Origin: Branchiostoma floridae
Taxonomy: Eukaryota; Chordata; Leptocardii; Amphioxiformes; Branchiostomatidae
Length of the DNA: 64,000 bases
NCBI RefSeq assembly: GCF_000003815.2
Contig: NC_049987.1
Location: 12,766,700 to 12,830,699 of the forward strand
Direction: 5' to 3'
The position numbers and the translations under genes are program-made. Under the pieces are notes generated by a model, which saw only the letters and a list, made by a program, of their open reading frames with translations, did no database searches and was not told where the DNA came from. Positions 237-39,497 of the stretch are shown one piece after another; positions within the stretch are counted from its first letter, which is position 1; each line of letters begins with the position of its first letter.

Positions 237-3200
237 CTGTGGAGGTAAGATATTGAGATGTGTGCTGTATTTCTATGATAATAGACAAAACAAGGACTCT
301 CTTTGACCGGATGTACCAGAGGTACATTACTGCTTACCGCTTACCGGTCCCGTGACATAGCTGCAGTTAATTGTGTCATGTTTCTTCCTGTCGGTATTGT
401 GGAACCCTCTCCCAACCATGCGCCCGTTCTTCGCGCAATTCCGCAGTGTGTTACAATAGCGATATTCCATTTTTAGCAGGACAAGACAGACAAAGAAGAT
501 GCACAGAAGAAGAAGCAAGGGTGAGCTGTAACAGCAAAATATTACTGTGGAAAATGATACGTTGATTATTTGTCAAATTACCATCACTTTAGAAATCGCA
601 GTAAACATTGCGGTATTATGGTAATGAGTGTTAATATTTTTCACTTCCAATATGTCTAATTTTCGGCCTACCAAGCTTTTGCCCCATGAAAAAGGAGGAG
701 TCATTGAGGGAGAAACCATTGTGAAAAACTAGAAAAATAAAAGCTGAGAAGTAGTAAAAGTGTTTTTCCTTACCGCATACATCTTGCACAGGTTGTTTAA
801 CTCAAAGTCTGACATGACTTCCATGTCTTCAAATATCAGGTCAGCATTAGCATCATGGTGAGTCGGCTCCTGTGGGTGAGGCACAATGTCTGGTTAACCA
901 CAAAGAGACACACGTAGGTACAAATAGAGTAAAAGAAGTTTGCTTGAGGCAATCCCATCTGAAGCACTGACTGTACTATCCATAGCACTAACACCTGTCT
1001 TTGGTACTTCATATACTATCCATAGCATTAACAACTGTCCTTGGTGCTGACTATGCTATCCATAGCACTAACACCTGTCATTGGTACTGCATGTACAATT
1101 CATGGCACTAACCACTGTCCTTGTTAATGACTGTACTATCCATAGCACAAACCATGCTGGCCTNNNNNNNNNNNNNNNNNNNNNNNNNNNNNNNNNNNNN
1201 NNNNNNNNNNNNNNNNNNNNNNNNNNNNNNNNNNNNNNNNNNNNNNNNNNNNNNNNNNNNNNNGATTGTGTCCAGCGTGTAGTATGCCCTGTATACATGA
1301 TGGGTATTACTAACCTTGAGCATGAGTTTAGACATGTCCCTGAGTGTGTCTAGTGTGTAGTATGTCCTGTATACATGATGTGTGTAGTACTAACCTTGAG
1401 CATGAGTTTAGACATGTCCCTGAGTGTGTCTAGTGTGTAGTATGCCCTGTACACATTATGTGTAGTACTAACCTTGAGCATGAGTTTAGACATGTCCCTG
1501 AGTGTGTCTAGTGTGTAGTATGCCCTGTACACATTATGTGTAGTACTAACCTTGAGCATGAGTTTAGACATGTCCCTGAGTGTGTCCAGTGTGTAGTATG
1601 TTCTGTGGAGGAGGGGATGATTGGCCATCTTCCTCAGCTGCATCATGGCACCACTGAAGGTCGACGACCCATCCTCTGTCTTCAAGGATCGAGACAACTT
1701 TGCCTGGAACAGCAGAACACAAGAATCAATCTTCAGCTACAAGTGCACATCATGTCATATTGTTGGCATCTTTCAGTCTCGTGAGACAATGGCGGTTCGT
1801 GCCATGGTCTGCTCAGTTCAGTTTGTTGTTGGGTTACAGCGCCTGGTACAGACTGTCCTATCCATGGCACTAACAACACTGTCCTTGGTGCTGACTGTAC
1901 CATCCATAACACTAACAACACTGTCCTTGGTGCTGACTGCACTATCCATAGCATTGCCCCCGTGCTGTCCTTGGTGCCGATTGTACTTAGCACTAAGCAC
2001 TGTACTTGGTACTGACTGTACTATCCACAGTACTAACCCCTGTCCTTGGTGCTGACTGTAGTATCCATAGTACTAACCACACACTGTCCTTGGCATTAAC
2101 TTAACTATCCATACTAGTCATAATAATATCCTAATAATGTCCCATTTGGATATCAGTACAAAGACAAGTGTCTATGCTTCTGATAGACTAAAAGACATTT
2201 CTAATCTATTTGACTGAAAGTCAGCTATATTTCTTCCTTTCTTCACGACATTAAGAAGACAGTACCTTAAGATCAGCGTACAGTTCCACTTGTTTGTCCG
2301 TCATGGGGCAGTGCTCCACTTGCTCGTGTTTCTTGGGCAGCTGAGTCAGCACGTCTCGCTTCAACCTCCGCAGGACGAACGGCTGCATGATACGCTTCGC
2401 GTGCTCGATTCTCTCCCTCTGGAACTTACTCTCTGATTTCCCTTTCTGTGAAGTTGACAACAGAAAAATTATTTGTTCTCTTTGTTCCCTTCCAAAATTA
2501 ACTATCTGTTCATCTTAAAGACGAGTCTAAGTAACTAAAATGCCATTTCATAACAAGAACTAATGAACAAGTAAGAAGTGTGTAATAGAATTCAGATCTG
2601 ATGGTCTTGAACCGTGGCATGACGTACCGAGACTGAAGCAAACATCCTTCGGAGCTCTGTGGTCCGTGCGCTGAACATGTCAGGCATGATGAAGTTCAGG
2701 AGTGACATCAACTCCAGCAGGTTGTTCTGGATGGGAGTTCCTGTCAACAGCAGTCTTCTCTCACTCTGGGGAGGGTGGACACAAATAGGGACAGCCTCAT
2801 AACCATGGTGGTTAATAATGTAATTTTTTCAATGTACTTGTATGTTCACGGTTTTCACGGTGACAACTGTAACATGAACTTATCCCTAATTTTACGTGCA
2901 CCTACTGCTTCAGTGAACATTTAGTTCAGAGAAAAAGCTACATTTTCTCAGACTGTGAAAGTGTGGTACCGACAATACAAAGTGAATTACAGTAGTTTTA
3001 TTCCCAGTCTACTCGTGTTCACAAGACTAGTATCCCACTAGAAAGAATTTCACACTTTGAAGGCTGCTATTAGTCACCATCCACTGTTTTTCACTCCCCG
3101 AAAAGACTAGGACTAAGAGAATCAAAAGGCTGTGGTATACTGTAAATGCATTTGAGATCGCAGGGATTTAATTTCGCGGCAGCTGGAAAATGGAGTGTAT

Positions 3201-6200
3201 CAAAAGGCTGTGGTATACTGTAAATGCATTTGAGATCGCAGGGATTTAATTTCGCGGCAGCTGGAAAATGGAGTGTCTGCAGTGGTTTTGAGTTCGTGGT
3301 AACGCCATACACTGTAGTCACATACTGTAATGGAAAACTGTAGTTCCTTGTGATATATATATCTACTCATAAAGATGTAGTTACAAGTGAACTGACCCTA
3401 ATCCTGAGGAGTTGTTGGTAGCGTTGAGTCTGCATGTTCTTCAGCATGTGTCCCTCGTCCAGGATGGCGTAGTGAAAGGCCACTTTCTTATTGAACAAGG
3501 TTCTGTCAGTGGCCGAGCCGACACAGCACTGGTACCTGTGGGGTTGTTTTCAGACTCTTCAGTATAGTACATTGGGAAGCACGGGGACATGTGTATGAAG
3601 TCAGAGTCACAAATTGCATAATAGAATTGTCACTTGTATTGGAGTGCATCCAAATTTACTGCCAATTAAGTTTCAGGATTTACAGAAAATTTTGCAGATT
3701 TCACACTTAACAAAAACAAATCTCCACACAACTTAAATCAAAGGAACCAACAATAAATAGCTCAGAATCCAAAAGCGTTGTTAGTCAGACTTGTTCGTTT
3801 GACTTTTATGAGAATATAAAAGTAATTCGGTAATGTTCTACTCACGTTGTGACGAGAACATGGAAGTCCTCCACTCCCTCCAGGATGTCATCTCTCATGG
3901 CCTGTCTGTCCATCTGGCTACCGTAGTAAATCAGCACCTGTGGGGTACACATTTAGTTACGGTAAGTCCACTCAAAGCATGAGGAGGGTGCACTGACTGC
4001 ACTCAAAAAAGGTCTATCCTTACCCCACTCATTACAGTTGCGATTTCTTTTGTGATCATATTTTCAGATCTCTCCTGTTGTTTTCAGAGAGTCTTTTATC
4101 CTGGAAACATTGGAAAAGTCATGCTTATGATTTCAGAAATCTTACAGAAACCAGGCTGATGTAATTTCTGCTGTTCTTCATATGTATAGTCTGTCTTCTA
4201 ATCCAGGGAGCATCAAGTAACATTGAAAGCCATTTAAATGTCAAAACAATAAAACAAGCAAGCTACCTTGAGATCAGGGCACCATTGTGCCAGTTCCCGT
4301 ACCCAGTTGTCTAGTGTGGAGGATGGCACAATGATGAGATGGGGTCCGTCGTCACCCTGCTCTAGCAGGTACGCGAGGAAGGAGATGGCCTGGGCAGTCT
4401 TACCAAGACCCTGCAGGAATGAACAATGATTGTTGGGACATTGCAGGTCTGCATCTCATAAAACCCTATAGCAACCTGTCTACTCTGCTTGGGGTGAGAA
4501 AAGGTTTTGGACAAAGGATGCTGAGTCACTCAATATAAGACAAGTGGCATCCCTGGTCAATCACAACTTCATGCCTGTCAGAGGATCTATTGCATCCAAT
4601 TTCTTGTTATTTTAATAAAAGTGTGTCCAGATGACACCATGATGCATGCCTAAGTAAAAGCCTGCCAACCAGAAAGGTTGATTTACTGCAAATACATAGG
4701 ATTCAGGATTCATGTGTTGTATTACATTATGTACACTTTACCATTTCATCAGCCAGAATCCCGTTGGTTCCCTGGGAGTGGAGAAGAGCCAGCCAGTTCA
4801 GCCCCACCAGCTGGTACGGCTTCAGCTGCATTGATTGGTTCACGTTCCCTGGCTGTTCCGTTAGCTGGATGTCCCCCTCGTCATCCTCATGCTCCAGGCT
4901 CCGCCCCATCTGGGACGTCACAATCCGCTGGTGGGCCTATGGACATAAGGGATGTTATCATTTTTTAAAAACCAGGTAACAGGTCTTGTGGCTTCTAGTT
5001 TTTTGTCTTCAAACTGCATTACAAATTACAAGCATGCAAACTGTACTGCAATTATGAAGGCACAGAAGTCCATCAAAACATGAGAAGCTAACATTGACAG
5101 ACTAGTCAAACCTTTATGTGTCTATATAGGCATACCAGAAGATCCATTAAGGTACAACATACAGAACCAAATAGCATCCAAACAAATATTGGTGACCTTT
5201 GAACCCCTTGGCCTACAAGTGACAACATTCAAACTCTCTTCTATGGTGTTCCAAATACCCCAAACATGCCCAACAGCCCTTACCTGTAACGTATACAGCT
5301 CCAAAATACCAAAATTTTCAAATAAAAAGACTTTTCACTTTGTTGGACTGATGTAGAGAATCAAAATTGACCTTCTGCAGCTGGGTTAATAGTTGATCCT
5401 TGCCCATAACCAGTAAGGGTTTTGATATATATAGAAGAACTAGCAAGCACTGTCTCACAGACACAACCTGAAGTTAACTGGCCTAACCTTGGAGATCTTG
5501 TGACACTGGTCCATGAGTCGTTTGATAACCTGTCTCTCCTTCAGCAGCACCTGACCGCTCCACAGGATGGTCAAGCTCAACCCTGCAGTCGTACTGAACT
5601 TATCAACCTGGGGAAGTGATATGTGTGGATTAATTGAAGTCAAATGATTTAGGATTTGCAATCTTTTCATAGTATACTATAGAGTGGAACTTGTTACGTT
5701 ACATTTAGGTACAACTGGAAGTATTTAACAATATGTGAAGTTAGAAATGCAGGTTTGTGACAAGTTTTTACATTTGAGTGAGTTTAACATGAGAAGTTAC
5801 CATTAGATTGATACTGGTAGAGGCCTAGGCACATGTGATTGATACTGGTTAAGGCACTTGTCATCACATGTGATTGTGTGGTAGAGGCATACTGAAACCT
5901 AAATTCCAGAAATTCAAAATTTGGATGCACAACATGTTTGAAAACTCACAATGTTTTTCCAGTTCTTGAAAGGCCGAGCAGCCATGATGACCTCAGCTTT
6001 CTTCTTGGAGCAGCCAGGAACGGTCATCAGCTCCTCCAGCGTAGACTCGCTGAACAGGGACAGCAGCGCCACCTAGCGTACATTTGGGAAGCACAACATT
6101 TAGCGTTGTATTGGGAGGAGTGATGAAACAACATTCAAAATCCTAGTAATCAACAGTCATTGCCTTGACAAAAGCACACATGTATCATGGCATTTTGAAC

Positions 6201-9200
6201 TCTTTTTGAAGTACATTGTACCAGTATATAAATAACTACCTGTTTCTCTGAAGGCATGTCCTCTGCATCTTCATCATCCTCCCCAAAACTGTCATCTAAG
6301 TCATCATCTGAACCATAAGCATCACCATCATCATCATCATCAGAATCTGCATACTTAGGCTTCTTCGTGCTAGGGCGCCAAAATGAAAAATATCTTCATG
6401 AACTTGTTGAAGTAAAAATGTAAGAACTTTACAGTATTCCGTCAACTCTATATCATGGTGGCTTTCATATAACCAATAGCAATTTCAATGTGAAATCTCT
6501 ACAGCGTTTTTAGAACAAATCACGAAATACATTTCAGAAAGCAGTTTCAGGAAGGATACCATGTGTGTTCTTAACATGACTCACCTTGGCTTTGGCTTCT
6601 TCTTTTGTTTACTAGTCCCTGCTACTGTTTCTGCAGGAGGCTCCTTTCTTGGGTTCAGTTTCTGTTTTCTTCTACTTGGGCGTTCTAATTGAAAGAAAGA
6701 GTACAAAGAGTTGCTTTAGTCCATGACAAATATTATACAAATAACGTGTACATGATTTTGGAATCAGAAAACAAGGAACATATAACATCAATTCTCATAA
6801 TGTCACCACATGAGAAAAAATTATTTTAAAGTGAATCAAAATAATGTGCTAATATAGCATGAGTAATCCTGATATGCACTTCAGACTTGGGTGTTCAATC
6901 TTGGGAAAGCTGCTATTATTATTAGTTTTTCTTTTATATGGCAGCATTACGGCATCTGGTGGAATTATAACAGTTGATGTTACATGCAGATGTAGGATGC
7001 TCCCTAAGCCACCATATGCTGGACAACAAGCTATCACCTATGTCATCATGTCATAGACATTAGTCACAATAGTGCTGGATTGCAATTCAGTACAATTAGC
7101 CTGTACCATTAACTTCTTGGTCTTTTTCCATCCTATACGACAAACTGCTGGCTGCTGCCTCCTGGTCCCAGTTCTCTGCTTCCAGAGCTGCAACAATGTC
7201 CTAACAAAACAGAAAGAAGTGTCAACAACTGCCTAACCCATGCCACTAAAACTTTTCAGTATACTGGTAAAACCTGTGCACTATAGTCAAACTCCTAGAA
7301 AGCTACAGGTTAATTTCATTTGTGAAAAATAATCCTGTATATACTAGCCTACACTTTGAGAAGTACTTTCATATACTTGTGAATCTGTCCATACCCTCAA
7401 ATTCTCCACGTATCCATCTAAGTCATTCATAAAGCAAACAAATAATTTTACATGGAATGCATGCTTTACCTCCTTAGGCATATCTGGGAAGAACTCCTGT
7501 AACTCTCCCACCAGCATCTCCCTGGCCTGGCTGTCAATCTCTGTCACATCCGAGTCCTGTGTCTCCCTAGGGCTGTCTTTCTCATTCCTGTCTTCAATAC
7601 GTATACAGCGCAAAACAGAGTTTGGGCTACTCGGCCTGGTCAGTGTTGATGACTTAAGTTTATGATTGGAGGGTTCTGAATCCCCGTCTGTCTTCTTATC
7701 TCCTTCCTCGTCGCTTTCGTCAAAGACAGCCACACGCAACTTCCGTAGCTTTGATCCATGTTTAATTGGGGTGCCAGGACTATCACACTTTTCTTCCTTC
7801 ATTGGAGTTGAGTCAGATAGTCCCTGAGAGCTGCTACTTGCACCCTCTTCTGTCAAATCTACTGGTACGTCAAATCTGAACTTCCTGAGTTTGGCAGAGA
7901 CACTGGCTTTCTTCCTACTTCCCTCAGTGTTTCCTTCTGTTTTTTTGAGGGGGGTACACTGCTTCTTGCTANNNNNNNNNNNNNNNNNNNNNNNNNNNNN
8001 NNNNNNNNNNNNNNNNNNNNNNNNNNNNNNNNNNNNNNNNNNNNNNNNNNNNNNNNNNNNNNNNNNNNNNNTTCTACGCTATCATTGGATTCTTGAGATT
8101 CCACACGTTGTCTTTTCCTTCTTGTAGGAGCTGCATGTAGGAGACAACAGATCAAACAGTTAAACTTAAACTGAATTCTACAGAGGATAAAAAATTGCTT
8201 CCACCCAAGAAATGAGATATGAAAGGCTGCAAAGCAAGAAAAGTTTTGTTTGTCACAACAGTTTTCTAATAAATTTTTTCTTCAGCTACAAAAACCCTAT
8301 ATTGCATAACACAGTTTAAAAGCAGGCTTGTACATCAAGCAATGACTATATTGGTAGCTGAAGTTATCATGTGAAACCTGGTAGTATCACAAATCATAGA
8401 CATTCAATGATTAAAACCTTTCATTCAGTATGTAGGCATTTTACCAGTGACTGTGACAAAATACAATAATCATGCACCGTAAGTTGGCTCATCATCGTTT
8501 GAGAACAGTTTGAATGCAGCAGCCACTGCAGACTCCAGACATGATGTATCCAGGATGACCTGCAGTTACAACAACATGGGATTCTCACGTTTGTATCCAA
8601 AACATTTGTCAACAACAAAAATAGACATCAAAATGTCAAGGATGTAGTACAGGTATCTGACTCTAGTATGAGACAGATCTTTACTCATACCACAGAACTA
8701 TAAACTTAAAATTCCTTTTTTATTACATTGGCCTTATATGATCATTTCCCAATGTTTTAAATCATGTGACCTTCCCCTTTGATTTTAAATACCCAGTTAA
8801 AACCGAATACTGGTGACCTTTGACCCCAATAAATGTCAATTATTGCCAACTTGACGACAGTTAGATATAAATGGGAGAAAAAAAGAAACTGTTATAATTT
8901 TGGTATAGCCGCTTTCAAAAGGCGTCTTCTGACACCTGTTCCACCATACCTTCCATTGTATATGAAGAAGCTCAATAAATAAATAATCATAAATAAAACC
9001 AAACAGAATTGTGCTGTTACCTCCAACAGTTCCTCCCTAGACTGTTCAGGGAAGATTTCCTGCAGGTGTGAGACTTTGTCCTCTGTTTCCCTGGCAACAG
9101 CCCCACCCTCACCATTGGAGCAGTATCCTGAAGTTGAGCTGGAAGGTCGCCCTGCAACTGGCAGTGTTGTCTTATCTTCCTCATCATCTTCATCAGCAGC

Positions 9201-10391: not shown

Positions 10392-11151
10392 GTTCGCTCA
10401 GGCACTTGTCGCACGTTCCGTGTGAAATAGAGTGGAGTACAGTAGGTCTAAAATACACCTAAAACCCGGAAGACGTTCCGTATAACATATGCCACTTGCC
10501 CAGACCTGCGTGCAACCGGCTCAGCTGATTATGAAAGGCAACGTGTGACACAAACCGGTTCTTAGTCCGGTTTGCGACGACCAGGGTCAAGGGACAGCTT
10601 GTTGGAAAGCACTGCCTCTACCTGACGATAAGGATCAGGAGGGACGCTTCCTCTCTTCTTTGGCGACAAGGTAAGATCAAAGGACAGTTTGCATTAAATT
10701 TTAAAGTAATTAATTGTGGTAAAATGACGTACAAACTGTCCGATTATTTCCCGCGCCCCGGCTTAGTTGTACGACGCATGCGCACTGGAGTACCGGAAGT
10801 GAACTCCCTTTCCCAGCATTCCTTGTGGGCGGCGGCCACACAGACCGCATTCAAAGGCGAAACAAATATTTACTGACCAAAATGCAAAAAAATATAAGCC
10901 AATCATCACAATATTAAGTGAAGGAAGCCAATAAATTGTTATGTTATAAGTGTTTCCATACATTAGTGTAAATACTCGTCATATATGAAGTTTGGGTTTC
11001 TTGCATTTTCCACATTCTGCTGTGTTTACGAGATCACGTGACATCCTGAGCTGGAGCTCAAGTTTGCAGCTAACTTTATTTTCTTCCCAGTTTGCCGCTA
11101 AAAATCCTTTCCAGACCGGGATCGATCCACTACCACGGGAAGGAATGAACC
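10392..11151. promoter_or_regulatory. Bidirectional promoter between SMARCAD1 and the CD2AP-type gene
   Basis: Only about 760 bp separate the two divergent start codons. The segment is rich in CpG relative to the introns. It holds an NRF1-like palindrome CGCATGCGCAC at 10775-10785 and an ETS/GABP-like site ACCGGAAGTGA at 10792-10802. No TATA box is obvious, as is usual for housekeeping promoters. A possible untranslated exon ending at 10670 has a good donor (GACAAG|gtaaga) on the plus strand. Confidence 0.65.
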
Positions 11152-29100: not shown

Positions 29101-32100
29101 TGTGCTTGTCTGAGGGTGTTGCTTACAATACAATGTTCCTGTCTGTTTCTGCACTGCTGGTGTGGCGCACACAGCTGAAAAAAAGGAGCACACAGACAAA
29201 CCAACCAACAAACCCGACGATCTCCCTGCCAGGCACCTGGGTAGTCTGGGTAGAAAACCTGGCACACTACCCCCCAAACCTTCAGGTGAGAGGGTTTCAG
29301 GGGGGTGTCCTTTGTTGTTCCATGCTCCCATCCATCCATCCATCCATCCATCCAATCATTCATCCTTCCATTCATCCATCTCTCCAGCCACTTTTCATCT
29401 TGTCATCACTCCGTCCATCCTTCATTCATTCTTCATTCCATAAAATATGTGTTCAGTGTGAAAGAATGTGTCAAATCAAATGAACAATATCTCAACTTGC
29501 TCTGCCCCTCGTGTTTTCCCACCCCATTTTGTGACACTTTGGACTGTATTACAGCAGCTTCAGAAAGTTTGGGTTGAAATTTGGGCCACCCCTGCAGAAT
29601 TGTCATCCCTGACATGTATCCTGTGCAGAACGGTTGTAGTCCTGGGGAGAGGCTGTTGCAAGTTGCCAGTCACTTGTACAAATACAAGCTCCTGCGCCAT
29701 GTTAAATATTCTACCACAGGTCTTTGAAAGAGTGGCCCTGGTGTGAGCGGATTGAAAAGTTGCAGTCTAGCTACACTTGGGCAGTCATATTTAGTCATCT
29801 GAGTTTAATAGTACCAGGTTTTTATGTCCAAATACAAAAGTCAATGTATATGTAGAAAATATCTGGCTCTCATACATTTTGTACCAGCTACAGGAAGGTA
29901 TTACAATAAGGAAACACTGACTTGCATCCCTAGCTGTACTGACGGCCACCAGAGTATTGTAGATACAGATCTCTTTATTGTATGTATACATTTGTGTATG
30001 TAGCTAATCACTTATCTAGATACAGTAATTTGATGCACAAGGTTCCTCTCTCTCCAAGGTTCCATTGAGGAAAAGTTAGACAAAAAGTCGGCCACCCTCC
30101 CGATCATTCCTCCTAAGAAGCCGGGTCCTCCAACCACAGCCAAGAAACCAACCTTCGCAAAAAGTACAGAATCTCTCAACTCTACATCATCCACTGAACA
30201 AAATGCAGACGGTGGTAGGTTTATCTAGATAAAATGTTATGTATAATATGTCAGGTAGTTGTTAATGACGATTTAACATTGTATTGCAGTGTTCAAATTG
30301 GATGATGATTATTGATATCCTACAAAAGTCACAGTAAAGATGCACCTCTTCCCATATCATCATGAATTAATCACGGCATCTTTCCTGGGCCATAAATTAA
30401 TCAGGACTTGGAAAGGACATCATGAATTAATGAATGATTTTATCAGAATGTTTTCAGCTTGTGAGATCCGTTGTCAATTCTTACCAGACTGAGTATTCCT
30501 TGTACTATGAACCATAAGGGTAAGAAAGGGAGTGTCGTTTTGAGTACAGACAGTTATTGTCATTGTGTGTAGATTTGGAGTGTAGATTTGGAGTGTAGAT
30601 TTTCACGTATCTTTTTGATCCCACGTGATGCCAACTGTGTTTTTTTTTCTGTCATTTTGCAGAGCTTGGTAACTTTGACCACATTCAGGTGTCCCCAGAC
30701 AAACTGACACACCTGACAGCACAGAGAGCCAAACATCCCAACAGGAGACCCCCCTCCATGTTCGCCTCTCCTAAGGTGAGGCCTAGGGGGAGTGTACATG
30801 TGTGTGTTTTTTTTCATTGTCTATGAGTGTAATGCTCAATTTACAGGGTTTAACAGAACTATTGATGTAAACGATTGAGTGTAATGAGAAGGTGATTTCT
30901 TGATGTAGTATATATTCTATAATTTTTTTCATGTGGGTTGGCCCTAGAGCCTGCGCTGGGGGCTTTTTTAGGTGGGAGATGGTGTCAACCATATCACAGT
31001 GTATTGAAACAAACATTTGGTGTCCCCATGTATTATATCAAGATACACAGTCACATTTAATAAAGATAGGAACCAGGAGGTATGTAGATTATATACAGTG
31101 ATGAGTACGTATGCATCACATTGCTGTAGGAAGATGAGACTGCTTGAATTTGAAAAATGGCTCATTCCATGTTTGCTAGGCCTCAACTTGACTTTCAGAG
31201 CACAAAACAGTCCTGATAACTTCTGGATGTGAATATTTCATTGTTCTCTGCAACATTGGCTTGATATTCCACTCAAACATCTTACTTTGATTCCTACCAT
31301 ACCATACATGTATATATGGTTGAAAGAAAGACAATCATATCTTGCTCACTTGCAAAGAAGTCCTTCCTTCTCTACTCCTAAACATTGAGACTCCCTTCCG
31401 CCAATGTCTTCCGCAGTTTGCCTCAGCTTGCACATATTTGGAGGTACGTGTTGAACACAGTCAGCACACCTCCCATGTATTGTTGTGTTGCTTGTTGCAT
31501 GATACAGCCTGTATCTACCTGGAAGAAAAATAATAAAGGGAGGCGACCTATACAACATGTAGCTACTGGTGGTTTTCTGAACTGGGTGGTAAGTTCCTGC
31601 AGTTATGAAATACACAGAAAAGGTTGCAAGTGCCTTCAAGCTGCTTTCACAAACATAACTACTTCTGAAAATACTAACAGCAGGCTTTTGACCAGCACTT
31701 AGACAGTCATGATGTATAAAAGCACCATAAAAATCATCTGCTACTTGTCAGGTTTTGTACAGTTCTAACTTCATCCTTAGTGATTAGATCTGTTAGGGTT
31801 GACCATAGTTCTGTAACTGTAACCATTGAAGATGCATGATTACATTAGATCTACTTTGTCACTAGTAACATTGCAAAAGTTGGGTCATGTGGAAAAAATT
31901 AATGTAGATTGATATAGTCCACCTTTTATTAGTGATGCAGTATGCATATTGAAGAGAAATGACTCCTTATAACCATGAACAAATTAAAAAAAACTACTTT
32001 GTACTTTGTACCACCAAAAATATTAATACATGTAGCAACTTTGCTCAGATTCAAGTATGTTAATATGGTATAATTTCTTAAAGAGTGATTTGTAGGAAAA

Positions 32101-34639
32101 TGATATTCGGCAGCAATAACGTCTTGTCCCTGTGTTGTTCACTCATAATGCACATGAATGATATTTGATGAATTGAAGTGTCAGTGGCAATATCTGTATT
32201 AGACATCTTAAACCATTTGCACAATTGGAGTATTGTTTCTGCACTTGACTTTAACAGTTGTACAGCCATGTGACACCATCGTAACAAATGTAATATCCAA
32301 ACACATATTAGTGAAGGTAGATGTCTTTTTCAACCAAAGCAGCCTTGGGATTATGTGCTAAAGACAAACAACAGAAAACTGAACATGCTTTTCTTGCTGG
32401 ACTCAGTCAGAGTTGCTGGAAAGCCACAACCTTTTTATTTTTAGTTAAGAGTCATTGAAACATGCGTCATATTTTCTTGTCACCTCCAGGCTGAGAATGG
32501 GAATGAAGTGGAGGAGAGCAGGACAGAAACGGTGGAGAAAAAACAACCCGAGGTAATAAAAGAAAAATTGAAAGAAGAAAAGGAAGAAAAGGAGGAAGTT
32601 GTCCAGCCCCCCTGGGCTAAGGATATCCGTAAGGGGGCCTCTCTCAGGAGGGGGGTGATACCCCCTACTACAAAGGAGGTGAGAAAGTTTATGTCATCAG
32701 CATATTGTATTTTTGTTCTTTGAGTCACACAGCATTTTGTCAAATTGGAGCCATTGAGGATTTTAGGATTGCAGCAGATTTTTAAGTTTTACATGCAGTG
32801 TCTCTCTTTCTTTATTTTGTGACAATAAACTTTTCCATGATTTAAAATGGATGAACTTTATTGCTGGTATAATGTACATGTATTACATCAATGACAAAAC
32901 AATCAATACGATGAGTCTCGACTATTCTAAAAACTAAATGGACTGTGGTGTGTGTTTGTGATTGCTTGAGGTGATGTGATTTTTGGTTCACCTTTTCAAT
33001 GAACGGATATTTTTTTCTGCACACCAGGAGCCTCTGCCTGAGAAGAGACCACCACCTCCTGCTGTTCACAGGGCAAAACCAACCCTGCCGCTCCAAACAC
33101 CCGCAAAACCAGACAGCAAACCTACCACCCCTACAGAAACTCCTGTAACCACACCAGGTAAGCAAACCTACCACAACTACAGAAACTCCTGTAACCACAC
33201 CAGGTAAGCAAACCTACCACACCTACAGAAACTCCTGTAACCACACCAGGTAAGCAAACCTACCACTCCTACAGAAACTCCTGTAACCACACCAGGTAAG
33301 CAAACCTACCACTCCTACAGAAACTCCTGTAACCACACCAGGTAAGCAAACCTACCACTCTACAGAAACTCCTGTAACCACACCAGGTCAGCAAACCTAC
33401 CACTCCTACAGAAACTCCTGTAACTACTCCAGGTAAGCAAACCTACCACCCCTACAGAAACTCCTGTAACCACACCAGGTAAGCAAACCTACCACACCTA
33501 CAGAAACTCCTGTAACCATACCAGGTAAGCAAACCTACCACTCCTACAGAAACTCCTGTAACCACACAAGGTAAGCAAACCTACCACTCTACAGAAACTC
33601 CTGTAACCACTCCAGGTAAGCAAACTACTCGGTAAGCAAACCTACCACTCCTGTAACCACACCAGGTAAGCAAACCTACCACTCCTACAGAAACTCCTGT
33701 AACCACTCCAGGTAAGCAAACCTACCACTCCTACAGAAACTCCTGTAACCACTCCAGGTAAGCAAACTACTCGGTAAGCAAACCTACCACTCCTGTAACC
33801 ACACCAGGTAAGCAAACCTACCACTCCTACAGAAACTCCTGTAACCACTCCAGGTAAGTAAACCTACCACCCCTACAGAAACTCCTGTAACCACTCCAGG
33901 TAAGCAAACCTACCACTCCTACAGAAACTCCTGTAACCACACCAGGTAAGCAAACCTACCACGCCTACAGAAACTCCTGTAACCACACCAGGTAAGCAAA
34001 CCTACCACTCATACAGAAACTCCTGTAACCACACCAGGTAAGTAAACCTACCACCCCTACAGAAACTCCTGTAACCACACCAGGTAAGTAAACCTACCAC
34101 CCCTACAGAAACTCCTGTAACCACTCCAGGTAAGCAAACCTACAGAGCCACATGTAACCATTCCTATAGAACACCCTGTAACCACATCTATAGAACCACC
34201 TGTAACCACTCCTACAGAACCATCTGTAACCACTCCTATAGAAACATCTGTAACCATATTGGGTAAGCAAAAAGAAAGCTCATTGTATCTGGTAGAGTGT
34301 TTCATCATATAGTAATATCGTATATGGGACTAGGGACTTAATTCACCATATATCAAAGGGAAGCCATTGCTTCAGCAGTCCACGCTTGTTCCAGAAGTGG
34401 TCAGTTCATGACATGTGTAACAACGCCTCCTTCCTTCTCCCACAGGAACTCCATTAGACTCGAAGGCAGTAGAGGAGCTCCGTGGTGAGGTCCGGACGCT
34501 GAAGGAACAGATGAACAAGATGCAGTCGGACCAGAGACGCAGAATGAACGAGCTCCTGAACGAGATTGACGAGGAGAAGAAGGTGCGCATGGCCATGCAG
34601 GTTGAGCTGGACAGACTCAAGAAGCTGGTCATGTCATAA
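11152..34639 (+). CDS. CD2AP/SH3KBP1 (CIN85)-type three-SH3 adaptor, 720 residues
   Basis: This is a cytoplasmic scaffold that in animals links receptor endocytosis (Cbl-type partners) to cortical actin. Exons: 11152-11155, 19682-19839, 20686-20848, 22496-22735, 23270-23460, 23673-23736, 24002-24198, 24956-24982, 25941-25995, 28237-28290, 29175-29285, 30059-30214, 30663-30775, 32490-32678, 33028-33157, 34146-34262 and 34446-34639. They sum to 2163 nt, exactly 721 codons with the stop, and all phases agree. The order is SH3A (about 1-57), SH3B (about 115-175), the motif [14 protein letters not shown]3C (about 275-335), a proline-rich linker, the capping-protein motif (about 485-505) and a coiled coil (about 660-720). 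The linker [18 protein letters not shown] resembles CD2AP, while the first SH3 resembles CIN85, as expected for the single pre-duplication gene. The first coding exon holds only ATGG. An extra in-frame mini-exon array lies at 33158-34145. Confidence 0.93.
11194..11238 (+). other. G-rich tract with quadruplex potential at the start of intron 1
   Basis: Six or more runs of three to five G lie within 45 bases on the coding strand, about 40 bases past the first donor of the CD2AP-type gene. The pattern meets the usual G3+N1-7 quadruplex rule. Its position just downstream of a promoter suggests a transcriptional or R-loop role, which is inference. Confidence 0.5.
11240..13605. other. Intron 1 of the CD2AP-type gene, first part
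   Basis: AT-rich intron sequence with no exon, repeat or RNA that I can support. Confidence 0.6.
13618..13852 (+). mobile_element. 5'-truncated non-LTR retrotransposon (LINE) tail with target-site duplication
   Basis: The open frame from 13618 reads [33 protein letters not shown] and [19 protein letters not shown], then a stop. This is the typical extreme C-terminus of LINE reverse transcriptases (GHVLRM...GRRRRGRP...DR..WR). It ends in a GATGATGATG tail. The 12-mer AGTGTGCTGCCG occurs directly before (13606-13617) and after (13853-13864), a target-site duplication. Only the last 75 or so codons survive. Confidence 0.88.
13865..15508. other. Intron 1, second part
   Basis: It contains a weak relic of the TGTAAATGCA-type repeat near 14119-14215 (GCAAGGATTTAATTTCCTGG). 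Otherwise I see nothing. Confidence 0.45.
15509..15538. repeat. (GT)n microsatellite
   Basis: GT dinucleotide run with a short TTTT interruption. Open frames over it are low-complexity by-products. Confidence 0.9.
15721..17036 (+). repeat. Seven perfect copies of the 18-mer GGGGGTACGGACGCTACA
   Basis: Perfect copies start at 15721, 16094, 16459, 16823, 16844, 16862 and 17019, all on the plus strand, with three clustered at 16823-16879. The first three intervals are similar (373, 365 and 364 bp), but the DNA between copies shows no obvious repetition. Diverged relatives may exist, for example GAGGGGGTGTAGC near 16634. The element lies within intron 1 of the CD2AP-type gene, with no coding potential. 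I know no family with this word. Confidence 0.9.
17631..17702. repeat. Imperfect (GT)n microsatellite
   Basis: GT-rich low-complexity tract. The Cys/Val-rich open frame across it is not a gene. Confidence 0.85.
18172..18204. repeat. Short palindrome with AAGGAGGTT/AACCTCCTT arms
   Basis: CAAGGAGGTT and AACCTCCTTG flank a loop of about nine bases. The same arms occur almost back to back at 61853-61875, so this is probably a remnant of a dispersed element. Confidence 0.55.
18745..19085. mobile_element. CAGGGCTCGAAAT MITE, copy 1
   Basis: A 341-bp element with terminal inverted repeats CAGGGCTCGAAAT and ATTTCGAGCCCTG and internal GGGTGCAC/GTGCACCC palindromes. The flanking pentamer CATAC is duplicated on both sides. 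It is non-coding; the Cys-rich peptide read across it recurs in copy 3 because the DNA is repeated. Confidence 0.88.
19682..19839 (+). CDS. Exon 2: first SH3 domain (SH3A)
   Basis: The exon encodes [19 protein letters not shown] and [20 protein letters not shown]. It holds the ALYDY-equivalent, the acidic RT loop, the paired tryptophans and the FPDNFV strand of a functional SH3. The first base pair of the exon completes codon 2 (Val) across an 8.5-kb intron, giving [10 protein letters not shown], close to the CIN85 start. Confidence 0.95.
20849..22495. other. Intron 3 of the CD2AP-type gene
   Basis: I see nothing beyond ordinary intron sequence. Confidence 0.5.
22496..22735 (+). CDS. Exon 4: second SH3 domain (SH3B)
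   Basis: It encodes [20 protein letters not shown] and [20 protein letters not shown], a complete SH3 followed by a Glu/Lys-rich tail. The spacing from SH3A and the FPSNF variant both match SH3B of CIN85 and CD2AP. Confidence 0.95.
22854..22945. repeat. Foldback (long inverted repeat)
   Basis: The arms are near-perfect over about 35 bases, with a perfect core CTACTCAAGCAACTGGATAT, and are separated by about 20 bases. The transcript of intron 4 would form a stable hairpin. It resembles a short foldback MITE, but no clear target duplication is visible. Confidence 0.8.
24002..24198 (+). CDS. Exon 7: third SH3 domain (SH3C)
   Basis: It encodes [20 protein letters not shown] and [20 protein letters not shown], ending ELLPPEE. 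This matches SH3C of CIN85, whose exon also ends in LLPP. All residues that form the SH3 specificity pocket appear to be present. Confidence 0.95.
24568..24628. repeat. Imperfect inverted repeat around a CTTTCTCCCTG arm
   Basis: CTTTCTCCCTG...GCCT and AGG..GGCAGGGAGAAAG lie about 30 bases apart and can pair. It is in an intron of the CD2AP-type gene; function unknown. Confidence 0.6.
24956..24982 (+). CDS. 27-nt micro-exon encoding a PxxxPR motif
   Basis: Flanked by tgtag acceptor and gtacta donor, it encodes [15 protein letters not shown] fits the PxxxPR consensus bound by CIN85/CD2AP SH3 domains. It is phase 0 on both sides and so can be skipped without a frame change. The next exon continues [12 protein letters not shown], which matches the CIN85 linker. 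Confidence 0.75.
26068..26639 (+). mobile_element. Internally deleted mariner element with intact terminal repeats
   Basis: The 33-bp terminal inverted repeats begin CGAGGGGCGTGCAAT and differ at one position. They are flanked by TA on both sides (26066-26067 and 26640-26641), the mariner/Tc1 target. The element is 572 bp, less than half a full mariner, and sits in an intron of the CD2AP-type gene. Confidence 0.93.
26245..26544 (+). pseudogene. Truncated mariner transposase
   Basis: The frame starts [20 protein letters not shown] and continues with a mariner-type helix-turn-helix ([18 protein letters not shown], then the conserved TAPRPGRPS). After about 75 residues the sequence jumps to the C-terminal end, with [14 protein letters not shown] readable in another frame. 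The catalytic Asp-containing middle is therefore deleted, and the product cannot be an active transposase. Confidence 0.9.
26642..28236. other. Intron 9 of the CD2AP-type gene, after the mariner
   Basis: A pyrimidine-rich stretch lies near 27100-27240. No additional exon is supported. Confidence 0.5.
29328..29390. repeat. (CATC)n microsatellite
   Basis: A CATCCATC run just after the exon 29175-29285 donor. Open frames such as a Met-Asp-Gly-Trp repeat on the minus strand are artefacts of it. Confidence 0.9.
30663..30775 (+). CDS. Exon 13: capping-protein-interaction (CPI) motif
   Basis: It encodes [20 protein letters not shown]. The family CPI pattern is LxHxTxxRPK. Here the Pro is replaced by Ala (RAK), while Leu, His, Thr, Arg and Lys are kept. 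This region binds actin capping protein in CD2AP and CIN85. Confidence 0.85.
30776..32489. other. Intron 13 of the CD2AP-type gene
   Basis: No exon, RNA or mobile element that I can support. Confidence 0.5.
33158..34145 (+). repeat. ~46-bp minisatellite of mini-exon plus 25-nt GT-AG spacer
   Basis: About 20 head-to-tail units follow exon 33028-33157. A standard unit is a 25-nt spacer starting gtaagcaaacc and ending ctacag, then 21 nt that would encode ETPVTTP in the phase required by the flanking exons (phase 1 in and out). Some units carry gtaagt or gtcagc donors, some are 45 bp, and two have a short 16-nt or 34-nt form. A block of about 146 bp around 33600-33830 is itself duplicated. Exon 34146-34262 continues the same theme as purely coding 24-nt repeats ([16 protein letters not shown]). 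Confidence 0.92.
34146..34262 (+). CDS. Exon 16: coding Thr/Pro octapeptide repeat
   Basis: The exon encodes about four copies of an 8-residue unit ([32 protein letters not shown]) and ends in a gtaagc donor. It is symmetric (phase 1). The acceptor used here (cctacag at 34139-34145) has the same sequence as in the array just upstream, so any array acceptor could compete with it. Confidence 0.65.
34446..34639 (+). CDS. Last exon: C-terminal coiled coil and stop
   Basis: It encodes [20 protein letters not shown] followed by heptad-like Leu/Met spacing to LKKLVMS and a TAA stop. It aligns with the trimerising coiled coil of CIN85 (VEELRTQVRELRSIIETMKD region). Confidence 0.93.
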
Positions 34640-37600
34640 CACTGCGGCCTTGTGGGAAGACTGAAAGGAATTGTGGGAGTTTGGGTGAACGTGACCACCT
34701 CGGTGCTGTATTCTGTGTGTATAGAGAGAGACTATGGGGGAAAATAGGAAATTAGAATCAATCACTTATGCCTTGTTATGTCTGTTCAATCCTATGATAT
34801 TTAGCAAGAAAAAAGGTGGTGAAATCACCATTTTGATAATCATATATTACCAGGTCATTGTCATTTGAATATTTCCTTAGAGCTGTGTCAGCCTTTGCTC
34901 GTAGCTACTGCTTATGAAATGATTGAAATTCTTGGTGACTTCACTCACAAAACTAGCAACAAACAGCAACTACATGTAGTTTCTAAGGTCTCAGAGATAA
35001 TAAACTATCCAGTTCCAATGCAAACAATTTTTATGAAGGTGCAACATTCTTTAGGTAATACTTGTTCACCTTTATCTGCAGGGCAACCCACATCCGTTGT
35101 TTTTAAAAACGGTACTTGGTGATTTCAAGTCAACTATTTCAAATTGCAATATTTTCAAAATATTGCATTTTTTAAAACAACTGTATGCATCATTTAACTT
35201 GATATGTCTAAGAACCCTGTTTTTAAAAACAACGGATGTAGGTTACCCCACGGATAAAGGTGAGCTAATGTTAATTACTATGGTTAAAGTTTAACCCTCA
35301 GCACTCCAAGGGTGCCCTTAATCAATACATGGTATCTACATGTACATTTGTATGTACCTGGCACCTCATTAGAGAGAGGACTTAAGGTTAATAGACAGCA
35401 GAAGCAGCTTGTCTTTACCTTTCCTAGAACTTCTTAACCACATGTCAGTGAAACACTTCAGGTAGACTACAACTCTCATTTTCAAAGGACTTTCATTTCT
35501 GTAAAGTCTTCTGTACGAAATCAAGCAGTCTAAAATATCCAGAGGAAGTACTTGAACTTGGCAGAAAATTTATTTTGTGTACTCATCAGTTATACTCATC
35601 AGTTATGTTCAGAAGATAACATTGTGTTCCTGCCAAATCAAAGCATTCTATAGTAAGATGCATTTGTAAATTGTATGACATGATACACTGTACAGAGGCT
35701 ACTAGAGGCTAGAAGTCAGCACATAAAAGTACATTTAACAATGCTGCAAACCAATGAACAACATTTATATAGATGTGTTTCTATGTACATTTACTGTATC
35801 ACTAGCAAATCTACACTTTATGTATACTTAAACCTAAGTGCTCATTAAAATGAAGGACACTATTAGTTGATAATTGTGTAGTTTTGGGGTCTCACACCAG
35901 AGTACCTCTGCACTCCAAAACAAAACAATATATGGGCATACTTCTGTATAGTCACATCAAATGGTATGTTCCCAAAGGAACCATTCTGGTTGGTTGAGAG
36001 TATGTTGAGGTTTCATACAATGTTATTGGCTGTAAATGTCAACTCTGCACTACACAGGACAGTGCATATTGTAGTCTTTATGCAAGGTTCTAAAAGCAAT
36101 ATTAGTCAATGCCTTAGTACTCTGTGGTTTTCTCCTGATGATGCCATGGGCAGTTACACACCTGCACTGTCCGCTAGCCCTTATGTCCACCTAGGTAATC
36201 TCCAAGCAGATCTTTGGAGGGCAAACTCATAACTGACACAGTGGGCAGTGCAACAGATCTTGGTCAGCAGATTGCCCCCAGAACTTCTTTGAGATTAGAC
36301 CTAGACACAAGAAAATGTTTGAATCCCAAAGAATTCTGCTGGCTGCAAAACATTTAAATGTATTTTCTTCATATTTGGTTCCCACGAATGTAAGCAATGG
36401 GTAGAATTGGTGCTGGTGCCTTTTGCAACAAGACTTAATTGACAAGCAATTACTGGAAGTTTCTGGTAGCTTACTCTTTTGGTGTTCCAGAGGTTTTAAG
36501 TTTGTCATGCAGCAAAGTAGATTCTATTGTAGAAACAGCAAAGTGAAAGAATGCATTACATCGCATCACATAAGATTTTATTTCTGTGTCAGATTACTTT
36601 GCTGGTTACAGTTGATCATTAGCCAATGAAAACACTTTCCCATTTTCATGAGCCAATCAGAACAAGTGTGACAATGCCTTATACATAGTGACATGCTCTT
36701 ATGGCTCTCTGTCGACTGTTTTGATTTGTCGATAGCTTGTTGTCTGTAATTTGTTTAAATGCTGCAGACTTCTGACTCATGAGAACTAGCTATACAAGTT
36801 ATAATTCTATTGTTATCAATATGGGGCCTTCATTCAATGAGTAATTTTTTTGTGTATTTTGATGTTATTTGTATCATTTAAATGGGGCTGTTGTACAGCA
36901 CTATATACTACAAGTATCAGCCTAGATGATCTTTATAGTACTTTATGGCATCTATTATATAGTTTTTCTTTATATATTGTAGACGAAATATGAATATTTT
37001 CCTTCTGATTTAGAGTTTGCATCTGCCTTTAAATATATAATGTACTTATGCCTAATTATGATGACTGTGTCTGATTTTTTTTGTAATACATGTATGTTTT
37101 CAATGTTGTTGCATGGAAGTCTGTATCTCTGAACATTATATCTTCAATACAGAACTTTGAAAGACTAGAGGGGGGTGGGTAGAAATCAGATACCATCACA
37201 CCACTAGTCCTTGCTTTCTTAATTACGGTAGGTACTTACCAACTAAGACCAAGAGACTTCACAACTCCCCTTTTCTTTTCTTTTTTATTACTGACCGTTT
37301 CAAAAGCAAAACGAAATATATGTAAAAGTCACATCATTTTTTGCTCAGTTCCTAAAGCTATATCAAGTAATAAAATAAAGGGCTTTCTGGCTTGCCATTG
37401 CCCTCAGAGCAAAATGTTAGTACCAAATTTGTATTGCGTAGTTAGTGGGATCAAATTGTCTTCATGAAGATACATACATGACATAGACAGAATATCTTTA
37501 GGAGGTAATGAGTATACTTTAAACCTGCACATTTTTCTAAATTTCTACTTGTGCACATCTTATAGCAACTATTTAGCCCTGCATACTAAATATCAATGGT

Positions 37601-38103
37601 CACAATGTCTTTCTCAAAGTTGACTCCAAATAATTAATATCCAGACCAATCTTCAAAAACTTTGATACATGCGTGATCAATGCCTTTGGTAGTCTATTAT
37701 TACTAACGTTACATCTAATGATAACAAAGTCCTGTAAACTGGCTTCTTGATCTAAATGCCATAAAATCAACATCATGGTTTGGAATAGCATGACAACATC
37801 ATGACTTGGGATCCCACTAAGTTGTTAGTGCACACATGTCTTAAGTATCCATAACAAGTATAATCTCTAGATGGCACAATAGGAGAGAAGGTAATTTTTG
37901 AACCTCTGGCAAAAGCCTAAAAAAAGTATTACTTCTACAAAAGGAAATATTGGAGCCCTTCCTCTGTCTTATAATGACTTTGCTACACAGAAATAAGCAT
38001 GATGATACCCTCTCATGACCATAGACTGGTACCATAAATGATTTAAAAGATGGGTGGCTGGTGAATGATGATGATGATGACCTCCCCTCCCCCTGGACGT
38101 CCC
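34640..38103. other. 3' UTR of the CD2AP-type gene and convergent intergenic space with TIMM13
   Basis: Candidate poly(A) signals AATAAA on the plus strand lie near 34999 and at 37369-37379. The true ends of the two convergent transcripts cannot be fixed from sequence. The segment holds the inverted-repeat element at 35066-35263 and nothing else recognisable. Confidence 0.5.
35066..35263. mobile_element. 198-bp element with ~45-bp terminal inverted repeats
   Basis: The left end TCACCTTTATCTGCAGGGCA and the inverted right end match over about 45 bases with a few changes. The inner part CATCCGTTGTTTTTAAAAAC is perfect in both arms. The layout fits a MITE. No convincing target-site duplication is visible. 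It would lie in the 3' UTR of the CD2AP-type gene if that extends past 35.3 kb. Confidence 0.75.
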
Positions 38104-39497
38104 TCAGAGCTTCCCACGTTCCCGCTGTAACCTGGTGCTGTAGGTTCTGGAGACGATGTTCCAGGCATCCATGTACCGGTCCATACACATCGCTATACAC
38201 TTCTGTAAACACAAACAGGTTACATGTACCGGTCCATACACATCGCTATACACTTCTGTAAACACAAACAGGTTACATGTACCGGTCCATACACATCGCT
38301 ATACACTTCTGTAAACACAAATAGGTTACATGTACCAGTCCATACACATCGCTATACACTTCTGTAAACACAAACAGGTTACATGTACCGGTCCATACAC
38401 ATCGCTATACACTTCTGTAAACACAAACAGGTTACATGTACCAGTCCATACACATCGCTATACACTTCTGTAAACACAAATAGGTTATATAAAAATATGC
38501 TAGCCATACACATGACATACATTTCTGGTGTGGACACGGAAAGTTACAGTGTAAGGCAGACACAATAAAAGAGAGTATAACTTACATAGAAGAAAAGACT
38601 TCATTGTGTCCATTTTGCCAATTTGGTTTTATCAACACGCAAGGTATCTAAAAGTCTCATTGACGAATAAAAATTACTGCGAGAAATTGTGAAACCCATT
38701 ATTCTTCCAAATATATGAACATGAAACAGAACCAAGAAGTGTTATAGTACTGTAAATGCATTTAAGTTCACGGGGATTTAATTTCGCGGTAGCAGGAAAA
38801 AGGAGTGGTTTTAAGTTTGTGGTAGCACCATGCACTGTAGTCTCTTAATGCCATGGAAAATGTTCGCGGTGGTTTTAAATTCGCAGTGAAGCCGCAACCG
38901 CGAACATTAAACCACCGCGAAAGTTTCTGCATTTACACTATTATAGTATACAGAACTCACCTGTTCTGAGTTGTCCAGAGATGTTCCTGGTTTGGTCACA
39001 CACTTCTTGAAACATTTGTCTGACATTTTCTGCAGAAGATCAAGACAAATTTTCAGGTCAACAATAATTCCACAAATTATCACAGATGAGAAAAAGTAGG
39101 AAAGGCACAACAGATCTAGAAACAGTAAAAATAGACTCAGTAAAGATTATCATTTTTGACTAGTTAGAGCTTATACGGTCGGTATCTGCATCTGCATAAG
39201 TCACACACTTCGAATTTTATACGCAATGTCTTATTCTCTTAAATCCATTGGTGCCACATCATATTCGTTTACTTTGCAATAATTCCTAACAAACGATTCC
39301 CAAAAGACATGAAGCAATGTGCCCATGGGGGAGGGGGGCAAGTTAAAAGCCAGCCATGCGTTTGCCGGTTCCTAGAAACTAAATTTTACCTGCAATAATT
39401 CTTGTGCGTTCGCGATAGCGATCTGAGACTTGACTTGGTCCATGAGTTCATCTCTATTCACACCGGATCCACCGGCTGGAGGGCTGCCAAAATCCAT
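38104..39497 (-). CDS. TIMM13: TIMM13, mitochondrial intermembrane-space chaperone, 91 residues
   Basis: With Tim8, Tim13 forms a hexameric chaperone that escorts hydrophobic carrier and TIM23-type precursors across the intermembrane space. Exons: 39497-39390, 39029-38961 and 38202-38104, giving 36 + 23 + 32 residues, all phase 0. The twin CX3C motif is intact (CFKKC and CIAMC). Further matches are [27 protein letters not shown] and [14 protein letters not shown], each close to vertebrate TIMM13. The length is near the usual 95. The third exon is preceded by five extra copies of its own acceptor (38168-38488). Confidence 0.95.
38168..38488. repeat. 53-bp tandem array copying the TIMM13 exon 3 acceptor
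   Basis: Six acceptor copies (one real, five upstream in transcription) are spaced 53 bp apart. Each unit, on the minus strand, contains a tract TGTTTGTGTTTACAG followed by the first 33 nt of exon 3 ([11 protein letters not shown], or CMDWYM in some copies) and then an in-frame TAA. Units differ at only one or two positions. A splice into any upstream copy would give a truncated Tim13 that keeps both CX3C motifs but loses the outer helix. Confidence 0.93.
38743..38950. mobile_element. TGTAAATGCA MITE, well-preserved copy
   Basis: Terminal inverted repeats TATAGTACTGTAAATGCA and TGCATTTACACTATTATA enclose CpG-rich inner hairpins (TTCGCGGTGGTTTTAA with TTAAACCACCGCGAA). It ends about 10 bp from TIMM13 exon 2, inside the intron. 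A related copy lies at 3130-3355. Confidence 0.75.

What the first reader, a model, noticed from the sequence alone, without database searches (positions are those of the whole stretch)
1264..38488. Three unrelated genes each carry a minisatellite that spans a real splice junction
The arrays at 1264-1606 (SMARCAD1 donor, 78 bp), 33158-34145 (CD2AP-type gene, donor plus acceptor, 46 bp) and 38168-38488 (TIMM13 acceptor, 53 bp) all start from coding exon ends and multiply the adjacent splice site. Most minisatellites would miss exon edges, so three in one 38-kb stretch is notable. It suggests a process that preferentially duplicates or retains DNA at exon-intron borders, related to ideas of intron or exon origin by tandem duplication. 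The link to such a process is inference.
Basis: partly seen in the sequence, partly recalled or inferred. Interest (0 to 1): 0.85.

Follow-up and report, generated by a model that had tools for sequence, protein, structure and literature searches.

The report
Minisatellites that copy exon ends
Three neighbouring genes carry short DNA repeats that copy the edge of an exon together with its splice site; such repeats are already described in lancelets as 'mirages', but searches of this genome suggest that they are common and gather around one splice-site-like word, which is unexplained.

Summary
Arrays at 1267-1600 (78 bp, donor, SMARCAD1), 33115-34143 (46 bp, 24 donor-like sites, SH3-domain gene) and 38170-38487 (53 bp, six acceptors, TIMM13) each copy an exon end. 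Protein alignments leave room for one copy only at SMARCAD1 and TIMM13. This is a known kind: amphioxus "mirages" (PMC3087553, PMC3902484). The new part is scale. In the window's own 513-Mb genome, tandem triples of the donor words CAGGTAAG and CAGGTGAG give 1596 and 2310 matches; the same words backwards give 11 and 10, other non-donor words 4-146. Of 11 CAGGTAAG loci examined, 8 lie at exon ends and 3 are one dispersed repeat; 5 of 13 arrays sampled with a non-donor word lie at modelled exon junctions. But AAGGTGAG, a common donor here, gives only 157 matches, an acceptor word 99 against 61. So the bias follows a CAGGT core as much as exon ends. A bias is supported; its mechanism, and any link to intron origin, are not shown.

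The parts
1264..1606 (-). 78-bp minisatellite spanning the donor end of a SMARCAD1 exon; donors (G of GT) at 1550, 1472, 1394, 1314
   Evidence: exon joined to the next exon aligns gaplessly to SMARCAD1 9jao_C
1551..1703 (-). SMARCAD1 exon whose last 50 bp are copied in the array
   Evidence: start from the exon model
774..869 (-). next SMARCAD1 exon ([18 protein letters not shown]...)
1164..1263 (.). 100-N gap abutting the 78-bp array; array length is a lower bound
33028..33157 (+). exon of a gene with three SH3 domains (CD2AP-type, name inferred); its last 43 bp are copied in the array
   Evidence: SH3 exons upstream; exon model
33115..34143 (+). 46-bp minisatellite, 22.2 copies, 24 donor-like sites, mostly CCAG|GTAAGC
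34139..34256 (+). 24-bp in-frame repeat (PxEPPVTT-like) downstream of the 46-bp array, followed by another donor-like site at 34263
34446..34639 (+). last coding exon of the same gene
   Evidence: open frame and exon model
38170..38487 (-). 53-bp minisatellite spanning the acceptor of the last TIMM13 exon; first exon bases at 38467, 38414, 38361, 38308, 38255, 38202
38104..38202 (-). last coding exon of TIMM13; its first 33 bp are copied in the array
   Evidence: Tim10/DDP zinc finger; match to TIM13 3cjh_A
38961..39029 (-). preceding TIMM13 exon ([23 protein letters not shown])

Best explanation
The arrays are amphioxus-type 'mirages'. A segment of about 35-90 bp that straddled an exon end was duplicated in tandem, then multiplied and homogenised like any minisatellite. 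Extra copies fall on the intron side and are spliced away, so they are nearly neutral: the exon-proximal copy supplies the protein, the rest are spare sites. Such arrays are common in this genome because minisatellite birth or growth is biased towards sequence around CAGGTRAG, a word that is both the consensus 5' splice site and an enriched core of this genome's minisatellites. Shown: the arrays, splice sites in each copy, room for one copy only at two loci, different units in two copies of the SMARCAD1 region, genome-wide over-representation of CAGGTRAG. Inferred: which copy is spliced, neutrality, the species. Not known: why CAGGTRAG.
For: Anatomy. Protein alignments over the SMARCAD1 and TIMM13 junctions leave no room for a second copy. 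Units of 46 and 53 bp are not multiples of 3, and the C8 copy of SMARCAD1 has unit spacings 88, 88, 78, 80, 78 (last unit without donor) where C9 has 78, 78, 80; exon-near units differ, the two distal ones correspond, so no selected reading frame. Genome: CAGGTAAG 1596 vs 11 backwards, CAGGTGAG 2310 vs 10. 8 of 11 CAGGTAAG loci at exon ends, 3 a dispersed repeat. 5 of 13 arrays (4 of 12 independent) found with CAGGAAAG at modelled exon junctions. Literature passages: globin and Adh3 mirages are spliced normally and vary in length (PMC3087553).
Against: AAGGTGAG is 4 of 37 modelled window donors (CAGGTGAG 2, CAGGTAAG 1) yet gives only 157 array matches, so exon-end position alone does not explain the bias. 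SMARCAD1 (AAG|GTTAG) and TIMM13 (acceptor) do not carry CAGGTRAG as their splice site. Row counts are inflated by long arrays; by locus the CAGGTAAG excess is nearer 5-fold on contig C1. In arrays chosen without a donor word the effect is mild: strong donors in 10 of 54 units against 2.7 expected (letters backwards: 3 of 54), CAGGT 3-fold enriched in 64 arrays. One CAGGTGAG array whose flanks are held (L038) has no exon called. Random 200 kb: 1 clear case in 6 array places. No RNA was available.
Confidence: 0.72

Rival explanations
1. Motif hot spot: a CAGGT/ACAGG core promotes slippage or recombination on either strand, and exon ends are hit only because the consensus donor contains the core. 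Splicing plays no part in the birth of the arrays.
For: CAGGTRAG far above AAGGTGAG although AAG precedes GT in 14 and CAG in 7 of 37 modelled window donors; ACAGG 23 vs 7.1 and CAGGT 22 vs 7.5 expected in 64 arrays; L028 was found by CAGGTAAG on the strand opposite to its gene, at an acceptor; a dispersed family carries CAGGTAAG arrays without exons (L033-L035, L037); L038 carries a CAGGTGAG array with no exon called.
Against: 7 of the 8 non-dispersed CAGGTAAG arrays start in sense at an exon's donor (in L026 and L032 the exon-proximal donor itself is CAGGTGAG and CAGGTATG), although a Markov model gives 16.2 chance sites per Mb-strand of 19.2 observed, so most CAGGTAAG sites should not be donors. 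Arrays without CAGGTRAG also lie at exon edges (SMARCAD1, TIMM13).
Confidence: 0.4
2. Transcription- or splicing-coupled duplication (R-loops, U1 pairing, breaks at exon-intron borders) makes tandem copies at 5' splice sites.
For: Strong bias to two donor words, weak bias to an acceptor word (99 vs 61); sense orientation in 7 of 8 loci.
Against: AAG|GTGAG donors should also pair well with U1 (recalled) yet are seldom in arrays. TIMM13, L028 and L042 are acceptor arrays. No transcription data.
Confidence: 0.2
3. The arrays made the introns (Rogers model): tandem duplication of AG|GT-bearing exon sequence created new introns that are still made of repeats.
For: Proposed for globin mirages in PMC3087553. 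In the 46-bp array the donor's +4 to +6 bases coincide with the start of the copied exon sequence.
Against: At the three loci the introns continue beyond the arrays. Intron positions in other animals could not be compared.
Confidence: 0.1
4. Ratchet arrays: CAG|GTRAG acts as acceptor and donor, so the array is removed stepwise by recursive splicing and is therefore tolerated.
For: Would explain CAG over AAG before GT.
Against: Junctions of nine donor arrays score as acceptors at a median of 2.7, below the 3.7 of ordinary CAGGT and far below 8.4 for window exon acceptors.
Confidence: 0.04
5. Assembly artefact.
For: A 100-N gap abuts the 78-bp array; PMC3087553 reports that one globin mirage was wrongly assembled in a genome draft.
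Against: Copies carry distinct point differences and similar arrays lie within assembled sequence at many loci; resequencing argued against assembly error for PGBD5 (PMC3902484 passage).
Confidence: 0.03

Closest known systems
Amphioxus 'mirages' (Adh3; globins BflGb6, BflGb9; troponin C; PGBD5)
   Same: Tandem repeats of about 10 to 160 bp spanning an exon-intron boundary, donor or acceptor, with splice signals in many copies and, where two haplotypes were seen, different copy numbers (passages of PMC3087553 and PMC3902484).
   Different: The published cases found are single genes; here three further genes in one window plus a genome-level word count and a check of flanks.
Intron gain by tandem duplication of AG|GT segments (Rogers 1989, as cited in PMC3087553; potato RdRp, PMC4974935)
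   Same: The duplicated segment contains a splice site.
   Different: Here many copies and introns longer than the array; no evidence that the intron is new. PMC4974935 was seen in a search listing only.
Core-motif minisatellites (recalled: the human GGGCAGGANG core)
   Same: A short shared word (ACAGGT/CAGGT) is enriched across unrelated arrays.
   Different: The word here coincides with the consensus 5' splice site; the human core is from memory, not tested.

Membership tests
amphioxus mirage | tandem repeat spans an exon-intron boundary | tested here: met
   for the SH3 gene the boundary rests on an open frame and an exon model
amphioxus mirage | minisatellite-sized units (10-160 bp in the passages) | tested here: met
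   78, 46, 53 bp
amphioxus mirage | copy number differs between haplotypes | tested here: inconclusive
   the SMARCAD1 array differs between contigs C9 and C8, but the C8 copy may be a retained haplotype or a paralogue, and the C9 array abuts a gap; a 501-bp query downstream of the 46-bp array found only its own locus; the TIMM13 search did not complete
amphioxus mirage | normal mRNA despite the array | not testable with these tools
   no RNA; indirect support from protein alignments
amphioxus mirage | host is a cephalochordate | tested here: inconclusive
   513 Mb in 431 contigs; the record is unnamed, species inferred
Rogers-type new intron | intron consists of the duplicated repeats | tested here: not met
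   introns at the three loci extend beyond the arrays
Rogers-type new intron | intron position absent from relatives | not testable with these tools
   no other animal genome was available to me
recursive (ratchet) splice sites | junction scores as an acceptor as well as a donor | tested here: not met
   median 2.7 for nine arrays against 8.4 for window exon acceptors

The most novel reading that the evidence does not exclude
In this genome the birth of minisatellites is directed by a word identical to the consensus 5' splice site, so that a sizeable share of all minisatellites, perhaps a third (3 of 7 in the window, 1 of 6 in the random sample, 4 of 12 in the CAGGAAAG sample), are multiplied exon ends. 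Exon-end duplication would then be a continuous, genome-wide mutational input into exon and intron boundaries, and a live supply of spare splice sites.
Probability: 0.4. Interest if true: 0.8.

Novelty: new member of a known kind. Interest (0 to 1): 0.6.

Why it matters
Tandem duplication of splice sites is a proposed route to new introns and exons, usually argued from few cases. If one genome holds hundreds of such arrays, birth rates, decay, copy-number variation and splicing consequences become measurable. The finding also asks why a minisatellite core should look like a 5' splice site.

Tried and rejected
Ratchet (recursive splicing) arrays: tested by acceptor score and not supported. Selected 26-aa extensions from the 78-bp array (open frame): rejected because the C8 copy has 88-bp units. 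Two 40-42-bp arrays (966-1152, 1844-2093) are intronic in my model and do not cross an exon edge. The 194-bp array of L009/L052 has a donor-like word but no exon was found; not counted as a case. L021 has a 28-bp array that starts 2 bp inside an intron; not counted because it has 2.9 copies. A planned 1-Mb random sample was not possible; only 20 stretches of 10 kb were obtained, so the genome figures come from word counts and 26 flanking stretches (12, 14). My exon finder is crude and trained on this window; of its many predictions I hand-picked 45 exons. Rows merged or dropped before counting: two TTTTACAG loci (C6:632220, C10:3807632) and C143:71991 were merged with look-alike families, seven CTGGAGAA loci of one dispersed family were counted once, and one search dropped one of the twin loci L049/L050 and left out the window's 21-bp array and the L011 satellite. 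The k-mer list is contaminated at the top by remnants of the three query words; only words not contained in them are quoted. In one search the L030 row used the wrong donor and is not quoted. TAGGTGAG, meant to test the ratchet idea, did not complete. Literature searches for a genome-wide survey of mirages showed none in their listings of the held library; the original Adh3 paper was not held.
Full report
WHAT WAS CHECKED. Tandem Repeats Finder gives the three arrays at 1267-1600 (78 bp, 4.3 copies), 33115-34143 (46 bp, 22.2 copies) and 38170-38487 (53 bp, 6.0 copies). Reading the copies shows a splice site in them: four AAG|GTTAGT donors on the minus strand, 24 donor-like sites in the 46-bp array (23 GTAAG, one GTCAG), six TTTACAG|AAGTG acceptors on the minus strand.

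GENES. The first array lies in SMARCAD1: the peptide joined across the junction aligns without a gap to PDB 9jao_C (E 1.3e-28). The third lies in TIMM13: the joined peptide matches yeast TIM13, 3cjh_A (E 5.4e-14), with a 3-residue gap beside the junction, and TIM8 without a gap there; both exons match the Tim10/DDP family. The second lies in a gene with three SH3 domains; the name CD2AP-type is inference. At SMARCAD1 and TIMM13 the protein has room for one copy only.

ANATOMY. The copied exon part is 50 of 78, 43 of 46 and 33 of 53 bp. In the 46-bp array the copy begins inside the exon, and the donor's bases +4 to +6 coincide with the start of the copied exon sequence. Units of 46 and 53 bp would shift the frame. 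The 78-bp unit is open in frame, but a second copy of the SMARCAD1 region on contig C8 (93% over the array; 95-99% in the flanks) has unit spacings 88, 88, 78, 80, 78 where C9 has 78, 78, 80: exon-near units differ, the two distal units correspond, and the last unit on C8 has lost its donor. This is minisatellite turnover, not a conserved coding repeat. Whether C8 holds an allele or a paralogue is not known, and the C9 array abuts a gap.

CHANCE IN THE WINDOW. With 45 hand-picked modelled exons (1.4 edges per kb) and 7 arrays of at least 3 copies and period 20 or more, 0.40 units are expected to hold an exon edge; P(3 or more) = 0.005, or 0.003 for the five arrays of period 40 or more. The test is post hoc and the exon list crude.

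GENOME-WIDE WORD TEST. The window's genome has 513,431,437 bases in 431 contigs. I counted three exact copies of an 8-letter word at spacings that give periods of 30-60 bp; the tool also counts the word read backwards. Donor words: CAGGTAAG 1596 (backwards 11); CAGGTGAG 2310 (10); AAGGTGAG 157 (36). Others: near-miss CAGGAAAG 146 (27); acceptor-like TTTTACAG 99 (61); CTGGAGAA 79 (4). Single-word frequencies in 264 kb (per Mb-strand) are similar for CAGGTAAG (19.2), its reverse (23.4), CAGGTGAG (23.4), CAGGAAAG (21.3), AAGGTGAG (25.5) and CTGGAGAA (14.9); TTTTACAG is 42.6. Rows overcount long arrays. By locus, grouped by eye: CAGGTAAG 11 loci in the listed rows, which reach 29 Mb of contig C1, three of them one dispersed family; CAGGTGAG 15 loci in the listed rows, which reach 5.9 Mb; on the whole of C1 (35 Mb) AAGGTGAG 4, CTGGAGAA 4, CAGGAAAG 2, TTTTACAG 0.

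ARE THEY AT EXON ENDS? I fetched 12 stretches for all 11 listed CAGGTAAG loci. Four stretches (three loci: L033, L034/L035, L037) share one flank and are a dispersed repeat in which I saw no exon. The other 8 loci lie at an exon end: seven in sense at a donor (in L026 and L032 the exon-proximal donor itself is CAGGTGAG and CAGGTATG), one (L028) at an acceptor with the word on the opposite strand. Protein support: dynein heavy chain for L026, L027, L031 and, below the Pfam cut-off, L028; TMEM237 for L036; TPR (L030) and SPATA7 (L032) matches below cut-off; L029 rests on an open frame and acceptor. Less biased sample: the 13 loci in the listed part of 146 CAGGAAAG rows (stretches): 5 at a modelled exon junction (L042 acceptor; L044, L046, L049, L050 donor, the last two the same exon, so 4 of 12 independent), 2 coding repeats (L043, L048), 6 with no exon called at the array. 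Outside support for these five: a C2 domain in the exon upstream of L042 and an Hsp110-like match for L046; L044 and L049/L050 matched no Pfam family and rest on the exon finder. About 7% would be expected from the window's edge density (my arithmetic). In 20 random 10-kb stretches six places hold arrays of 3 or more copies and period 20 or more (L007, L008, L009, L011, L012, L019); one is a clear case: L008, 26 copies of 50 bp directly after an exon-like open frame.

WHAT THE BIAS FOLLOWS. If position at a donor were all, AAG|GTGAG arrays should be common: of 37 modelled window donors 4 are AAGGTGAG, 2 CAGGTGAG and 1 CAGGTAAG, the last being the array gene itself. They are not. In 64 arrays chosen without a donor word (53 from the three non-donor words, 11 from the window and the random sample), ACAGG occurs in 23 (7.1 expected), CAGGT in 22 (7.5), ACAGGT in 12 (2.9) (words overlapping the three queries are disregarded). 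Strong donors occur in 10 of 54 units against 2.7 expected and 3 with the letters reversed: 4 of 13 CAGGAAAG, 1 of 22 TTTTACAG and 5 of 19 CTGGAGAA units. So a CAGGT core is part of the cause. The idea that CAG|GT arrays are tolerated as recursive splice sites was tested and not supported.

EXPLANATION. Most likely: ordinary minisatellite birth and turnover, biased towards CAGGTRAG-like sequence, with copies that cross an exon end tolerated because splicing needs one copy. Shown: anatomy, single-copy need at two loci, word bias, exon-end position of sampled loci. Inferred: neutrality, which copy is used, species. Open: motif hot spot or splicing/transcription-coupled duplication.

KNOWN OR NEW. 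[quoted passage not shown] A passage of PMC3902484 adds PGBD5 and troponin C. The original Adh3 paper is not held. The listings of searches showed no genome-wide survey in the held library. The three arrays are new members of a known kind; the word bias is not mentioned in what I saw.

The TIMM13 alignment had been called gapless; it has a 3-residue gap beside the junction. Family searches of the CAGGAAAG-sample exons were added.

Noticed in passing
L002 (G000:C8:10977823-10981177): A second copy of the SMARCAD1 region on another chromosome-sized contig, 95-99% alike in the flanks; retained haplotype or segmental duplicate.
   Followed up: partly
window 966-1152 and 1844-2093: Two arrays of the same 40-42-bp unit family flank the SMARCAD1 exon and its 78-bp array on both sides.
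   Followed up: no
window 3121-3276 and about 38745-38940: A perfect 78-bp tandem duplication of a sequence (TACTGTAAATGCATTT...TTCGCGG) that has a relative near 38.8 kb; looks like a dispersed element.
   Followed up: no
G000:C1:221145-244541: Six arrays with donor words within 23 kb (221145, 222125, 229970, 231001, 238755, 244378); the three that were fetched lie at dynein heavy-chain exons (L026-L028).
   Followed up: partly
L033, L034, L035, L037: A dispersed repeat family with shared flanks that carries its own CAGGTAAG array (CAGGTAAGTAAGGTGTGTTTCCTTTTATA...), with no exon seen nearby.
   Followed up: no
L009 9186-10000 and L052: A 194-bp satellite of more than 2 kb whose unit holds CCCAGGTGAGT; no exon found.
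   Followed up: partly
L021 6731-6811: A 28-bp array starting 2 bp inside an intron, directly after an exon-like open frame.
   Followed up: no
L049 and L050 (G000:C10, about 0.4 Mb apart): The same exon with a similar donor array occurs twice on one contig: another duplicated or unmerged region.
   Followed up: no
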